Assembly: GCA_000508305.1 (NCBI GenBank)
Contig: CP006977.1
Location: forward strand, 310,001-374,000
Direction of reading: 5' to 3'
Source of the DNA: Sulfolobus acidocaldarius SUSAZ
GTDB taxonomy: Archaea > Thermoproteota > Thermoprotei_A > Sulfolobales > Sulfolobaceae
DNA length: 64,000 nt
Position 1 is the first letter of the stretch, and each line of letters begins with the position of its first letter. Shown here one piece after another: positions 40,245 to 44,906 of this stretch. Position numbers and translations under genes: made by a program. The notes beneath the pieces are model-generated. The model saw only the letters and a program-made list of their open reading frames with translations. It did no database searches and had not been told where the DNA came from.

Positions 40245-41579
40245 TCACGAAGAGTATATTGTTGCGTAGACTATGCCCCAATTGGCATATAAACCTCCTG
40301 TATTTCCACCTATAGCAAAAGTGTATTGTCCAGCAGGATATTTAAGACCTACGTTATACGATAGAGTAGCAGTCTTACCACTATTTAAATCAGTAACTTG
40401 AGTGTATAACCATCCAGTAGATGGATTATAAGTAGCTTTCATACATACGTAAAAGTAATTGGAAGTCTGTTGAATTCCAAAACCGTTATTACCAAGTGGA
40501 CCATATGCTGTAATACTTTTACCATTTACATGCCCGTTATGAGGATTTGGCGTTACGTTAAATAAGTTAAACGCAGATGTGCTACTTGCCCCAGATTCGA
40601 TCCAATAAGGATCCCATTGTACCATGAAATAATTTCCTTTAGAGTAAGGAAATATAAGTAAGCCTTGCGCGTATAGATAGCTGGTTCCTATTGACGGATT
40701 TGATACATAATAATCATTTCCAAGACTCCCATTATTAATATTTACAGGGTTCATGAAAAAGTAAATTTCAAATCCATCTGCAGGAGGATTTGAACCTACA
40801 CCAAAACCACCAATTAAAAATACAGTAACATTTTTATTTGGCTGAGTAGTATAATTGAAGAATATTAGACCTTGATCATTAGTCGGTATACCTGAAGATG
40901 TGGGTACAACTAATTCTAAAGACTGCTGATAATAATTTGGTGACCAACCAGACGCAGACGTTATTATGGGAATGTTATTATAATAAAATATGATAATGGA
41001 TCCAAGTCCAAAATAGTCTAATGATCCGATCTGCCTATCTCCATCTAGGTAATTGAATATATTGGCTGAAGGCATCTTTGTTAAGGTAACAGACAGTTGA
41101 TAGTTGTATATTGAATTTGTTGATGTCGTAAAATTAATGTAAATATTATGTGTGAGTGGAAAACTTGTTAACCCGTTTGTAGACTCCAACAATAAATAGT
41201 TTCCTGAAGAAGCGTTTACTGGTAAAACATAGGACGACGTGAAGTTTCTTAAGCTTAGAGAAGCTCCCTGCAAATTCGAGTAACCACCAACATAGGATTT
41301 TGTGGAAAGACTGAAATTAAGAATGGAAGTATTCAACAGGTTATAACTATTTTGTGTAGCCTGAACCGTAATCGCTGGCACACTTTCGCTGTAAACTCCG
41401 TTGTTAACTGTTGGTGTGATTAAAGAAAAATAATCTGGTAAACATGAGTTTACCAAATTTTTCAGAGACACCAGAACAAAAGGTACAAAAATTAGCTGAG
41501 CCTGAAAGAAGTAATACACAGATGCTGACGCTATAACGAGAACTACAAATAATAGAGGCAACAAGAAGTAACGCCTCAA
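40245..41579 (-). CDS. Large secreted surface protein with lectin-like C-terminal half; candidate thread tip adhesin
   Basis: 444 residues. An N-terminal signal or anchor (RRYFLLPLLFVVLVIASASVYYFF) is followed by a beta-rich, sequon-rich region to about 165, then a roughly 275-residue domain resembling the concanavalin/L-type lectin fold: ADGFEIYFFMNP, MVQWDPYW in the position of the lectin 'VEFDT' strand, NPHNGHV, and a final QYTFAIGGNTGG. The layout (pilin-like part plus lectin part) is what a filament tip adhesin would look like. TTG start overlapping the previous gene's stop (TTGA), with GGGGTG as Shine-Dalgarno. Domain assignment is by eye, not by search. Confidence 0.65.
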   Translation of the reverse strand: MRRYFLLPLLFVVLVIASASVYYFFQAQLIFVPFVLVSLKNLVNSCLPDYFSLITPTVNNGVYSESVPAITVQATQNSYNLLNTSILNFSLSTKSYVGGYSNLQGASLSLRNFTSSYVLPVNASSGNYLLLESTNGLTSFPLTHNIYINFTTSTNSIYNYQLSVTLTKMPSANIFNYLDGDRQIGSLDYFGLGSIIIFYYNNIPIITSASGWSPNYYQQSLELVVPTSSGIPTNDQGLIFFNYTTQPNKNVTVFLIGGFGVGSNPPADGFEIYFFMNPVNINNGSLGNDYYVSNPSIGTSYLYAQGLLIFPYSKGNYFMVQWDPYWIESGASSTSAFNLFNVTPNPHNGHVNGKSITAYGPLGNNGFGIQQTSNYFYVCMKATYNPSTGWLYTQVTDLNSGKTATLSYNVGLKYPAGQYTFAIGGNTGGLYANWGIVYATIYSS

Positions 41580-42121
41580 GGAGGTACACCCCTAACTAGA
41601 CTATCAGTTCCATAAGAGTAATACATGGTAAGGGAAAAGCTGGATGTCTGGTAGGAGCCGGTTAAGTAAACTATGAAACTAACGTTGTAAACCTGGTTCT
41701 GATAAACCTTTAATGGAAACTGGGACTGGGAGAGAGGATAAATAGTATATGTAAAGGTTTTAGTTGAGTTTTTGAATACCATGTTTACCTTGTATACCAT
41801 ATTTTGAGAAGAAATTGTCACATTAGATATGTAAAAGTATCCATTGGAATTGACCAATATTTTAAGGACATTCAGAAAATAAGCTTGAGTGGAGTTAGTT
41901 ATATCGAGATATAATGAGACTTTACCTTGAGAAGACTTAGAATAGGCGAATTGGCTTTGACTTAAGCCCACAATCACTATCGGCGAATTACGGTATGATA
42001 TTGCATTCGTAGACGTATAAAAAAGCACGTAATCAGATAAGGTAGTCATAACAAGAGAGAACACAAATATAAGAGACAAAAACCAAAAAAACTTTTTTAT
42101 CTTATTCAAAACCCCTGCCAC
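41576..42121 (-). CDS. Small membrane-anchored or secreted pilin-like protein
   Basis: 181 residues. A basic start (VLNKIKK) and hydrophobic segment FFWFLSLIFVFSLVMTTL act as a signal or anchor; the rest is beta-rich with four N-x-S/T sequons and a Ser/Tyr-rich composition like the thread subunit in front of it. About 150 mature residues would form one immunoglobulin-like domain. Likely a minor subunit or adaptor between filament and tip. GTG start nine bases after the thread gene's stop; a TTG at 42109 with GGTGG before it is an alternative. Confidence 0.6.
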   Translation of the reverse strand: MAGVLNKIKKFFWFLSLIFVFSLVMTTLSDYVLFYTSTNAISYRNSPIVIVGLSQSQFAYSKSSQGKVSLYLDITNSTQAYFLNVLKILVNSNGYFYISNVTISSQNMVYKVNMVFKNSTKTFTYTIYPLSQSQFPLKVYQNQVYNVSFIVYLTGSYQTSSFSLTMYYSYGTDSLVRGVPP

Positions 42122-42130
42122 CTGCCCTTT

Positions 42131-42751
42131 TTATGGTGAGGGTAGAGGTACAGGTGGTGGAGCAGCTGTCATTGGTGAAAATCCGAAGTTGACTGTTATA
42201 GTAGCTATGCCATTAGAGGGATTCTTAGGTAATGTACCTTGGACTGGAGATATTAGTAGGCTCACCATGTAACTTCCAGCACTAATTTGTAACGGAGTAC
42301 TGGGTAGGGTACTGTTTGATTGACCATTTATAACTAATTTATATTTGTAGATAATCTGCCCTTGTTGGTTCATTATATATAGTGTAGCGTTCTGAATAGG
42401 ATTATTAGATCCTTGATATGAATATAATACTTTCGCTAGATATATATAGCCTGTCTGGCTAACCACTAATCCCATAAAGTTGAAGTAGTAATTGTATGTT
42501 GCGTTCGTGATATTTATATTAGCAGTAAATCCGCTTCCGCCTGTGGAGGGTTGAGCACTAATATAATTCGGAACATTAGAGTTGTTTCCAATCTTATTGT
42601 TACCTCCTGGTTGTGTCGCAAAATACATTGGTGGAGTTGTAGTATTTACAGTTATTTGCCCTTGGTAGTAGTAAATTACGTCTGCAACTAGCACTGGAAC
42701 AAAAACAGATACCAGAAATACCGACAGCAGAAGAAGTCTCTTCTTATTCAT
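42131..42751 (-). CDS. Thread filament subunit (matches S. acidocaldarius Saci_0406)
   Basis: 206 residues. A clear Sec signal (MNKKRLLLLSVFLVSVFVPVLVA, cut before DVIYYY) is followed by a beta-rich mature domain with six N-x-S/T sequons (NTT, NNS, NIT, two NAT, NST) and a Pro-rich end. From published work I recall that the S. acidocaldarius thread is built of one heavily glycosylated protein, Saci_0406, held together by donor-strand complementation; size, sequons, signal peptide and the adjoining genes fit it. Identity is inferred, not searched. The ATG at 42751 is preferred over 42757 because the TATA box is 26 bases before it. Confidence 0.7.
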   Translation of the reverse strand: MNKKRLLLLSVFLVSVFVPVLVADVIYYYQGQITVNTTTPPMYFATQPGGNNKIGNNSNVPNYISAQPSTGGSGFTANINITNATYNYYFNFMGLVVSQTGYIYLAKVLYSYQGSNNPIQNATLYIMNQQGQIIYKYKLVINGQSNSTLPSTPLQISAGSYMVSLLISPVQGTLPKNPSNGIATITVNFGFSPMTAAPPPVPLPSP

Positions 42752-43069
42752 AGTCATTCACTTTACTGCTTATTTTTAAAAATGCGTTTAAAAGCTTTTT
42801 ACCTCTTATTTTAAAGGAACTAAATTAGGTAGAGTCTTTTTTAACTTTCGTCTCTCAAAGTTAATAGTTGAAACGTGCATGAAACAACTGAATGGTAATT
42901 AATACTTCGCGTAAATTAATCCCAAATATCTGGGTTTGTAAAAAAGATGAATTACACTTATCCATAATGTTAGTATTAAAACTGTTTACGTAAATTTCAG
43001 ACTATAAAGTTCCTCATTAACATAAGACATGGAACAACATAATAACAAATGGAATTAGATGAAGATAAT
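42752..43069. promoter_or_regulatory. Upstream region of the thread subunit gene
   Basis: 318 bases with no gene. Near the thread gene, CATTTTTAAAAATA on the minus strand (about 42770-42783) is centred about 26 bases before the ATG at 42751. A second TTTTAAAC (about 42787-42794) and a T-rich run follow upstream. The short inverted repeat CCCA-AATATC-TGGG (about 42920) is the only other structure I see. The other end of the gap is the 3' end of the two-domain protein gene, so that gene and the thread gene are separate transcription units on the same strand. Confidence 0.45.
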
Positions 43070-43900
43070 TTAGTTTTGATAATTTATTTCCGTAGTTAGA
43101 TTAAACTCTTTCAGAATCTGATCTCCGTTTGATAGTTTATATTTCAGTAAAATGACTATACCAGCTGTGTATATATTTCCACTTTCTAGAGATGAAATGT
43201 GGAAAGGATTGTAACTTAATTTTATGGGTATTTTCACATAATTTGTACCCTGTATAAGCGAGATGTTAACGTACTTAATACTATTGTTTAACGGAACAGA
43301 CATGGCGGCTACGACTTCATTATTAGTATCATCATTTATGTAAGCGTTCTCAACATACTCTAGGGTACTGTTCAAAGGCGTTATAATCTTTAAGAAAAAT
43401 GTACCATAAGTTCCGTTAAACGAGACATTATAAAGACTAGCCACTAATATAATCTCTGGCTTAACTAGGTCACTGAAAGAGATGTAAAACCTTGTAAGAT
43501 TATACTCTCCTCCAATAATCCCCGAGATTTGTACATTACTTGTATTGACAACATATTGAAATAGACTTGAAGTTATGGGCAATGTTATATTAAATTCCCT
43601 AACAGAATGAGGAGGAACCAAAATTCCGGGGGATACAGAATAATTACCTACTCCAGGGATATACAGATAACCATTCATAAGAGGAATATATGTGGAGATG
43701 GTGTTATTTGCTATTAGTGATATTACAGTCTCATTGCCATACATGTTTATACTTACAACGTTTATATAAGGAGGTAAATTGGAAAACGTAACCACTCTTG
43801 CTAGTTTTTGCTGATAAAATGTTATAAATATAGAAGCCACTAGAGCAACTACTAAGACTAATATAAATATCTTATAATAAACGTTAGGACTCGAAACCAT
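43070..43900 (-). CDS. Membrane-anchored, probably two-domain beta-sandwich glycoprotein near the thread gene
   Basis: 276 residues. One N-terminal membrane segment (about 10-29, KIFILVLVVALVASIFITF) is followed by two stretches of about 110 residues (40-150 and 155-272) made of alternating beta strands with about twelve N-x-S/T sequons. The first has a GYLYIPGVGNYSVSPG loop and a PPHSVREFNITLP strand that recall the LEA14-like or immunoglobulin-like folds. It has no enzyme motifs. Placed just upstream of the thread gene, it may anchor or help to fold the filament subunits outside the membrane; the function is inference from context. A TATA-like GTTTTTATG about 24 bases upstream supports the ATG. 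Confidence 0.6.
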   Translation of the reverse strand: MVSSPNVYYKIFILVLVVALVASIFITFYQQKLARVVTFSNLPPYINVVSINMYGNETVISLIANNTISTYIPLMNGYLYIPGVGNYSVSPGILVPPHSVREFNITLPITSSLFQYVVNTSNVQISGIIGGEYNLTRFYISFSDLVKPEIILVASLYNVSFNGTYGTFFLKIITPLNSTLEYVENAYINDDTNNEVVAAMSVPLNNSIKYVNISLIQGTNYVKIPIKLSYNPFHISSLESGNIYTAGIVILLKYKLSNGDQILKEFNLTTEINYQN

Positions 43901-44105
43901 GTTATTGGACTAATTTGTCATAAAAACTTTGAATATTTATGCTTGCGTTAAAATCTTCACTAAAAACAACTTACTTAAAACATCTTTTAAAAATCAAGTT
44001 GTAACACGTTATAAACATGTACATCTTCTAGTTCTTCATGTGTGTCCTTTAGATATAAAGGTAGACATAAGATTTTTATTTAGTAATTTTATACATGTAT
44101 CTCAA

Positions 44106-44906
44106 ATGCGAACAGAGTCCATCATATCGTTCATTATAGCCATGGTCACGCTAGTATCACTGTTTCTCATACCTGCAATGGGCTTGTCAACTTACACTTA
44201 TAGCATTAAAATTTTGGGATTTCTAATGAGTGTTAGTTTTTACAACGTTAATTATACTATAATAATACCCTCAATGGTTACAACAATTCTATTTGTAGCC
44301 TTGTCTGGTATAGTTCCCCTGTTTTGGAAGTCCAGATATTCACTCTACACATCTTTTGCTTTTTCAGTTTTGTCCATTTCGATGTTAGTTGTTACTTATA
44401 TCTGGGTAAGTAGATACTTCCTTGTTAACAATTACCTTGTTGTACCTACAGAAAACGGAATATTCTATCAGCTCTCTTCCTATAATTTAACCTTAGGATT
44501 GTCGTCTTACTTATTGTTTGTAAATGCTTACTTTGATGGTATGGATGCAATATCTAGAAGTACATGGTTAGATCGATTAATAGGTAGAAAAGGAACATAT
44601 ATTGATCTAGTAATCGGCATAGCTAAGACATACAATATGCCGTATCAAAAGACTGAAGACGGCGTAATAGTCGGTAATGACATTTTAATTACACAGGGTA
44701 ACATAAGTCATGATAAGCTAGAATCTAAACAGATAAAGAAAGTGTATATGGTTAAAGATTCACATATTTTCCTCATAGAGACCGGTAAAAGTGGAAATGA
44801 CCCACAGGTCTTTGAGCTGAAGGAAGGTATGAAAAAACTTTTGTCAGATATTGTTGAAAAAGTGGGGGACAAGATAAACATAATGTATAAAGATGACTAT
44901 CCTTGA
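44106..44906 (+). CDS. Four-helix membrane protein with C-terminal soluble domain next to the thread locus
   Basis: About 266 residues from the ATG at 44106; the open frame extends upstream to 43929, but that part lacks a normal N-terminus. Four membrane segments are expected (about 7-25, 50-70, 78-100, 125-145), then a soluble domain of about 110 residues with short alpha/beta text (IGRKGTYIDLVIGIAKTYN, VYMVKDSHIFLIET). I do not recognise the family. It is divergent from the two-domain glycoprotein and could be part of the thread system or independent. Confidence 0.55.
   Translation: MRTESIISFIIAMVTLVSLFLIPAMGLSTYTYSIKILGFLMSVSFYNVNYTIIIPSMVTTILFVALSGIVPLFWKSRYSLYTSFAFSVLSISMLVVTYIWVSRYFLVNNYLVVPTENGIFYQLSSYNLTLGLSSYLLFVNAYFDGMDAISRSTWLDRLIGRKGTYIDLVIGIAKTYNMPYQKTEDGVIVGNDILITQGNISHDKLESKQIKKVYMVKDSHIFLIETGKSGNDPQVFELKEGMKKLLSDIVEKVGDKINIMYKDDYP

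What the first reader, a model, noticed from the sequence alone, without database searches (positions are those of the whole stretch)
40245..44906. Thread filament locus with several possible assembly components
The 206-residue secreted, sequon-rich protein at 42131-42751 fits the S. acidocaldarius thread subunit. Same-strand neighbours at 41576, 40245 (tightly coupled) and 43070 are also secreted or anchored, beta-rich and sequon-rich, and a polytopic membrane protein lies divergently at 44106. Threads are joined by donor-strand complementation like bacterial chaperone-usher pili, but there is no outer membrane or usher in archaea and the assembly route is not known. Everything needed (subunit, minor subunit, possible tip, possible chaperone or anchor, membrane component) may lie in these five genes.
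Basis: partly seen in the sequence, partly recalled or inferred. Interest (0 to 1): 0.85.

Follow-up and report, generated by a model that had tools for sequence, protein, structure and literature searches.

The report
Archaeal thread pilus and assembly genes
These five genes are the known locus for an archaeal surface fibre called the thread, and comparison across about 90 related loci shows that two neighbours of unknown function, a membrane-anchored tandem-immunoglobulin-like protein and a four-helix membrane protein, travel with the fibre subunit (in many relatives as a dedicated signal peptidase plus membrane protein), which makes them the first well-supported candidates for the unknown thread assembly machine.

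Summary
42131-42757(-) is the thread subunit, 84% identical to Saci_0406 (PDB 7pnb). The cluster and the cap idea for 41576-42121 are already published (Gaines 2022, 2024); assembly is stated there as unknown. New here:

In 22 Sulfolobaceae genomes, the 43070 and 44106 genes occur in all 8 genomes with a subunit and none of 14 without.
(2) The core recurs far away. The family of Vulcanisaeta and a third family have co-directional operons subunit / 43070-type / 4-TM, usually with a full-length relative of the 444-aa 40245 protein.
(3) In most other lineages the 43070 position holds a second, dedicated signal peptidase with a C-terminal ectodomain, next to a 4-TM gene (43 loci, never together with a 43070-type gene). 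Five loci keep that ectodomain without the peptidase.
(4) The 43070 gene is intact here but split by one base in the S. acidocaldarius reference ("Saci_0407/0408"). AlphaFold predicts a TM helix plus two Ig-like domains.
(5) The 40245 protein looks like a tip adhesin.

Best model: signal-peptide cleavage at a membrane complex releases each donor strand for exchange. Gene association is well supported; mechanism and sequence homology of 43070 to the peptidase ectodomain are not proven.

The parts
42131..42757 (-). thread subunit (Saci_0406 orthologue)
   Evidence: 84% identical to PDB 7pnb, E 5e-110
42644..42682 (-). N-terminal donor strand of the mature subunit (DVIYYYQGQITVN), directly after the signal peptide
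   Evidence: identical first residues to Saci_0406; most conserved stretch of the family
41576..42121 (-). minor subunit / published putative cap (Saci_0405 orthologue); divergent paralogue of the subunit with an N-terminal hydrophobic segment (GTG start)
   Evidence: subunit profile hits it at E 7.8e-9; mature-only hhalign 9e-8; start codon and segment
40245..41579 (-). probable tip adhesin (Saci_0404 orthologue), 444 aa, translationally coupled to the 41576 gene
   Evidence: full-length homologue of the last gene of subunit operons in two other families, hhalign 1e-20 to 1e-25; 4-nt overlap
41484..41525 (-). donor-strand-like motif ASVYYFFQAQLIFV after the signal peptide of the 444-aa protein
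   Evidence: motif matrix built without window/S. acidocaldarius ranks it 13th-16th of about 1,080 non-subunit ORFs; most of those above it are thread-locus proteins
40248..40874 (-). C-terminal beta domain of the 444-aa protein, legume-lectin-like
   Evidence: domain family alignment; weak matches only: PDB lectins E 0.45-0.53, Lectin_L-type E 0.098
43070..43900 (-). membrane-anchored tandem Ig-like protein, intact counterpart of the split Saci_0407 + Saci_0408
   Evidence: homologues beside the subunit in all 9 Sulfolobaceae with threads and in the Vulcanisaeta family; AF2 pLDDT 85
43799..43888 (-). TM helix (residues 5-34) of the tandem Ig-like protein
   Evidence: AF2 model
43082..43768 (-). 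two Ig-like beta domains (residues 45-146 and 148-273)
   Evidence: AF2 model; Foldseek best matches are tandem Ig-like domains of transglutaminases, E 7.5e-8 but TM-score only 0.32
43395..43399 (-). T5 run where the S. acidocaldarius reference has one extra T that splits the gene
   Evidence: pairwise DNA alignment
44106..44906 (+). polytopic protein: four TM helices, two beta-rich external loops, C-terminal cytoplasmic domain
   Evidence: homologues co-occur with the subunit; topology (low-confidence model) and hydropathy
42758..43069 (.). intergenic region; probable promoter of the subunit operon (T-rich/TATA-like sequence close upstream of the ATG)
   Evidence: sequence upstream of 42757; published RNA-seq places a separate promoter here

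Best explanation
The locus encodes the thread filament and its dedicated assembly apparatus. SHOWN: 42131 is the filament subunit; 43070 (anchored tandem Ig-like) and 44106 (4-TM) are its conserved partners; 40245 is a conserved locus member with a donor-strand-like start and a second beta domain. INFERRED: subunits are exported by Sec while tethered by their signal peptides. Cleavage by a signal peptidase frees the N-terminal donor strand. A membrane complex of the Ig-like ectodomain and the 4-TM protein holds the last-added subunit and guides its freed strand into the groove of the incoming one. 40245 (tip lectin) starts the fibre at the distal end and 41576 starts or ends it. In most other Thermoproteota the Ig-position protein is itself a dedicated signal peptidase with an ectodomain, so cleavage and strand exchange would be coupled in one enzyme. 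In Sulfolobaceae a peptidase from elsewhere, probably the general one, would do the cutting.
For: Subunit identity. Co-occurrence 8/8 vs 0/14 in Sulfolobaceae, Fisher p about 3e-6, tree-uncorrected. Co-directional, partly overlapping operons subunit/43070-type/44106-type in Vulcanisaeta and its family, and subunit/43070-type/4-TM in a third family, usually followed by a full-length 40245 homologue (E 1e-20 to 1e-25). Subunit family in 75 of 229 genomes of the class and about 20 genomes outside it. Of 72 subunit loci, 61 have an ectodomain-type gene within 5 kb and 52 also a 4-TM gene. SPase-type 43, 43070-type 13, ectodomain-only 5, never two together. Catalytic Ser in 41/43 and His in 42/43; ectodomain-only proteins match the SPase ectodomain at 5e-15 over the whole domain. 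TIGR02228 over cut-off. The linked SPase is a second or third copy beside a short one. Of 48 co-directional ectodomain/4-TM pairs, 44 overlap or lie within 20 nt.
Against: Direct sequence homology of 43070-type proteins to the SPase ectodomain is at noise level (best E 5e-4; 1-5 of 60 shuffles as good), so equivalence rests on position, mutual exclusion, size and topology. 44106-type vs SPase-cluster 4-TM is weak (E 0.0024, 0/60 shuffles), and the 4-TM proteins of the third family are not detectably related to 44106 by sequence. The 44106 model is poor. Some loci have neither partner (11 of 72, 7 near contig ends). Polarity is unknown. No signal peptidase is linked to the locus in this genome.
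Confidence: 0.6

Rival explanations
1. 43070 and 44106 are not catalysts but the cell-proximal anchor: the Ig-like domains and the 4-TM protein hold the finished fibre at the membrane while strand exchange is spontaneous.
For: TM anchor plus two Ig-like domains; FimA rods can self-assemble in vitro without the usher, though slower, per an abstract returned; no energy source or usher in the locus.
Against: The same position is held by a conserved active-site signal peptidase in 43 loci, which suggests action during maturation; Vulcanisaeta has a separate acceptor-only subunit that could serve as terminator or anchor.
Confidence: 0.22
2. Reversed polarity: 40245 is cell-proximal and its lectin-like domain anchors the thread in the glycosylated S-layer, while donor strands point away from the cell.
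For: Polarity is stated as unknown in the literature; the lectin-like domain also occurs in membrane-anchored proteins of other Sulfolobaceae.
Against: A distal lectin is the usual logic of an adhesive pilus; no direct evidence either way.
Confidence: 0.15
3. The neighbours serve post-translational modification (for example the putative thread O-mannosylation or the isopeptide bond) rather than assembly.
For: The 2024 paper suggests a thread-specific O-glycosyl transferase.
Against: No glycosyl transferase, sortase or other enzyme domain found in any of the five proteins; tandem Ig-like fold.
Confidence: 0.07

Closest known systems
Thread locus of Sulfolobus acidocaldarius (Saci_0404-0409; Gaines et al. 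2022 PMC9715654, 2024 PMC11607397)
   Same: Same genes in the same order, 84-89% protein identity. It is the orthologous locus in a sister species.
   Different: The 43070 gene is one intact ORF here, whereas the S. acidocaldarius reference has two ORFs split by one extra T. The papers assign no function to 0404, 0407 and 0408.
Bacillus TasA/TapA/SipW fibres and archaeal bundling pili
   Same: Donor-strand fibres with a minor subunit; the distant thread loci found here also carry a dedicated signal peptidase with a weak SipW match.
   Different: Thread subunit profiles do not match TasA or AbpA in PDB sequences. The thread-linked peptidases carry a C-terminal beta ectodomain and a 4-TM partner; no linked peptidase in Sulfolobaceae.
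Bacterial chaperone-usher pili (Fim/Pap)
   Same: Donor-strand-joined beta subunits; two-domain tip protein by analogy.
   Different: No usher and no PapD-like chaperone detected. In 40245 the strand is at the N-terminus and the lectin-like domain at the C-terminus, the reverse of FimH.
Bacterial type V pili
   Same: Strand exchange triggered by proteolysis of the precursor N-terminus is the closest mechanistic parallel to the model proposed here (established knowledge).
   Different: Thread subunits are not lipoproteins (no Cys in the subunit sequence) and the protease would be a signal peptidase.

Membership tests
Archaeal threads (Saci_0406 type) | Homologous subunit | tested here: met
   PDB 7pnb E 5e-110, 84% identity
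Archaeal threads (Saci_0406 type) | Signal peptidase I-type leader followed by Asp and a triple-Tyr donor strand | tested here: met
   VLVA/DVIYYYQGQI identical
Archaeal threads (Saci_0406 type) | N-glycosylation sequons | tested here: met
   6 NxS/T in the subunit
Archaeal threads (Saci_0406 type) | Residues of the isopeptide pair Asp24-Asn57 | tested here: met
   Both residues present in the window protein; whether the bond forms is not testable here
Archaeal threads (Saci_0406 type) | Fibre joined by donor-strand complementation | not testable with these tools
   needs cryo-EM
Archaeal threads (Saci_0406 type) | Conserved gene neighbourhood 0404-0409 | tested here: met
   colinear with the S. 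acidocaldarius locus L063
Chaperone-usher pili | Outer-membrane usher | tested here: not met
   no Pfam or NCBIfam match in the locus
Chaperone-usher pili | PapD-like periplasmic chaperone | tested here: not met
   43070 is tandem Ig-like but membrane-anchored, and no PapD-type entry is among the top 50 fold matches
TasA / archaeal bundling pili | TasA/camelysin-family subunit | tested here: not met
   no Pfam match; profiles A1 and A2 find only threads with confidence in PDB
TasA / archaeal bundling pili | Linked SipW-type signal peptidase | tested here: not met
   absent from the window locus; present in 43 relatives' loci
Type V pili | Lipobox cysteine | tested here: not met
   no Cys in the subunit

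The most novel reading that the evidence does not exclude
Threads are the visible part of a widespread archaeal surface-fibre system in which a dedicated membrane signal peptidase with a tandem beta ectodomain, plus a 4-TM partner, both matures the subunit and drives donor-strand exchange: an usher-free, single-membrane assembly machine spread over many families of Thermoproteota. In Sulfolobaceae and the Vulcanisaeta family it has been reduced to, or replaced by, a peptidase-less anchored Ig-like protein.
Probability: 0.45. Interest if true: 0.82.

Novelty: new member of a known kind. Interest (0 to 1): 0.62.

Why it matters
How donor-strand fibres are built in cells without an outer membrane is an open question that the discoverers of threads state explicitly. 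The comparison reduces it to two or three named genes with clear deletion and active-site tests. It also extends threads from a few crenarchaea to many families of Thermoproteota, and supplies a dedicated signal peptidase as a mechanistic handle.

Tried and rejected
Homology of 43070-type proteins to the SPase ectodomain was tested repeatedly and against block-shuffled nulls: not established, so not claimed. Homology of the 4-TM families f1/f6/f4/SPase-type: only f4 vs SPase-type is solid (1e-10); f1 vs SPase-type is suggestive. AlphaFold of the 4-TM protein: pLDDT 56, used only for rough topology. Legume-lectin identity of the 40245 C-terminus: only E 0.1-0.5 matches, kept as 'lectin-like'. 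A MinD-like ATPase beside the locus was considered as an energy source, but it occurs in only 4 of 9 Sulfolobaceae thread loci and not in this genome. 'PapD-like chaperone' for 43070: no PapD-type entry among the top 50 fold matches. A second long signal peptidase in the genome (L196) is not near any thread subunit and its ectodomain does not match. The cap-type ORFs of other Sulfolobaceae share the donor-strand start but are not clearly alignable to 41576 (hhalign 0.04). The primary paper on archaeal bundling pili is not held.
Full report
WHAT IS THERE. The window (G000:C1:310001-374000 of a 2,061,920-base genome) comes from a sister species of Sulfolobus acidocaldarius (from memory, the size fits strain SUSAZ). 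The five ORFs of the finding are real. 42131-42757(-) is the thread subunit: E 5e-110 and 84% identity to PDB 7pnb. The 41576 gene starts 9 nt behind it. The 40245 gene overlaps that by 4 nt (TTGA), as in S. acidocaldarius. All five genes evolve under purifying selection (dN/dS 0.09-0.35).

WHAT WAS KNOWN. Gaines et al. 2022 (PMC9715654) solved the thread, named the cluster 0404-0409, proposed Saci_0405 as a cap, found 0407/0408 predictions inconclusive, and found no definite chaperone or usher. The 2024 paper (PMC11607397) says 0404, 0407 and 0408 are assumed to be assembly components of elusive function. Two text searches found no later assignment in the held library; subscription papers are not covered.

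ONE GENE, NOT TWO. In the S. acidocaldarius reference locus (L063; subunit as in 7pnb) the 43070 gene is two overlapping ORFs of 183 and 115 aa. They are separated by a single extra T in a T-run (T6 against T5 here). Both halves show the same strong constraint (dN/dS 0.11 and 0.09). So Saci_0408 + Saci_0407 (numbering inferred from order) are one gene, intact here and full-length in the other Sulfolobaceae seen. A sequencing error, recent mutation or phase variation cannot be told apart here. The intact protein folds with AF2 pLDDT 85 into a TM helix and two Ig-like domains. The best fold matches are the tandem Ig-like domains of transglutaminases (E 7.5e-8, TM-score only 0.32).

CONSERVATION. 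In the order-wide sample, the subunit (E 1e-20 or better), 43070-type and 44106-type genes are found in exactly the same 8 of 22 Sulfolobaceae genomes, within a few kb of each other in each; a ninth carries all three too (L133/L180). Gene order and strand vary between species. In Vulcanisaeta (L183, L185) they form a co-directional run: a 337-aa subunit variant, subunit, 43070-type, 44106-type (8-nt overlap), a donor-strand minor protein, and a 141-aa subunit that lacks the donor strand but aligns to the rest of the subunit at 6e-21. Other members of that family (L202, L205-L208) have subunit / 43070-type / 44106-type / 480-520-aa protein, and a third family (L072-L074) has subunit / 43070-type / a 4-TM protein not alignable to 44106 / the same long protein. 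That last protein is a full-length homologue of the window's 40245 protein (hhalign 1e-20 to 1e-25). The 43070 families of Sulfolobaceae and the third family are homologous (4e-10).

THE WIDER FAMILY. A profile of 20 subunits (A1) finds the family in 75 of 229 genomes of the class and in about 20 genomes outside it within the phylum. Mature-only profile comparisons confirm homology without the signal peptide (3e-15, 4e-7, 2e-8, 2e-25). Among 72 loci, 61 have an ectodomain-type gene and 52 also a 4-TM gene within 5 kb. In 43 loci that gene is a signal peptidase I with a roughly 190-aa C-terminal ectodomain, in 13 a 43070-type gene, and in 5 an ectodomain without peptidase; no locus has two kinds. 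The ectodomain-only proteins match the SPase ectodomain at 5e-15, and the catalytic Ser and His are kept in 41/43 and 42/43 SPases. These SPases are extra copies beside a short one, pass the archaeal SPase cut-off, and match SipW weakly. The 4-TM gene overlaps or nearly touches the ectodomain gene in 44 of 48 co-directional pairs. Many SPase loci also have a long protein starting with the subunit-like ASVF-YYP strand between subunit and SPase.

LIMITS. By sequence, the 43070 type is not demonstrably homologous to the SPase ectodomain (nulls). The claim is positional equivalence; remote homology is possible. The 44106-type link to the SPase-cluster 4-TM proteins is suggestive only (E 0.0024). 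Co-occurrence counts are not corrected for phylogeny.

MINOR AND TIP PROTEINS. 41576 is a divergent subunit paralogue (7.8e-9; 9e-8 mature-only). The 2022 paper found no Sec signal for Saci_0405, but both species have a GTG-initiated N-terminus with lysines and a long hydrophobic stretch ending TTLS/DYVLFY, so Sec export or membrane anchoring is plausible. 40245 begins, after a signal peptide, with ASVYYFFQAQLIFV. A motif matrix built without the two Sulfolobus species ranks it 13th to 16th of about 1,080 non-subunit ORFs, and most ORFs above it are thread-locus proteins. Its C-terminal domain has relatives on membrane-anchored proteins of other Sulfolobaceae and weak lectin matches.

MECHANISM (inference). 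If the lectin-bearing protein is distal and gives its strand to the first subunit, donor strands point to the cell and growth is at the base. The strand that must be freed for the next step is then the N-terminus still attached to a signal peptide. A dedicated signal peptidase at the growth site, or in Sulfolobaceae a general one working with the anchored Ig-like protein and the 4-TM protein, would couple cleavage to strand exchange. This resembles protease-triggered type V pilus assembly more than chaperone-usher assembly. It explains the peptidase linkage, the 4-TM partner and the acceptor-only subunit of Vulcanisaeta as terminator or anchor. It is untested.

VERDICT. The finding is correct and its key refutation test fails to refute. 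The locus itself is an orthologue of a published one. What is added is a conserved assembly module and a testable route.

Noticed in passing
L064 6037-6618, L065 4668-5300, L066 899-1486, L070 5412-5999: A MinD/ParA-like KGGVGKS ATPase gene lies directly next to the 44106-type gene in four Sulfolobaceae species; no match at E 1e-6 in the window genome.
   Followed up: partly
window 42131-42757; alignment A1: The published isopeptide acceptor Asn57 sits in a GNNSN loop found only in the two Sulfolobus species of the alignment; most other subunits have a deletion there, so that cross-link may not be general.
   Followed up: partly
L196 3794-6978 (G000:C1:1501793-1504977): A second long signal peptidase with secreted neighbours and flanking small putative regulators, conserved in S. 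acidocaldarius and related loci L198/L199; L200/L201 show long SPases beside secreted proteins that look TasA/bundling-pilus-like by eye.
   Followed up: partly
L183 8764-9777, L185 8841-9869: Vulcanisaeta thread operons start with a subunit variant carrying a Cys-containing CTAGYWKNH insert in its middle.
   Followed up: no
L183 12815-13240, L185 12908-13336, L203 10187-10615: Acceptor-only thread subunits lacking the donor strand, a candidate terminator or base of the fibre.
   Followed up: partly
L081, L122, L125, L126, L135, L148, L179: The 4-TM protein is fused to a further 430-670 residues in several loci; in L122 part of the fused protein matches the subunit profile (2e-5), suggesting 4-TM plus minor-subunit fusions.
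   Followed up: no
L084 6341-7534: The lectin-like domain of the 40245 protein also occurs behind a zinc-ribbon and TM segment in another Sulfolobaceae species without a thread subunit.
   Followed up: no
PDB 8q30 vs profile A1: Weak match (E 0.007) of the thread profile to a DUF4352 protein with 139 chains in PDB, possibly another filament.
   Followed up: no
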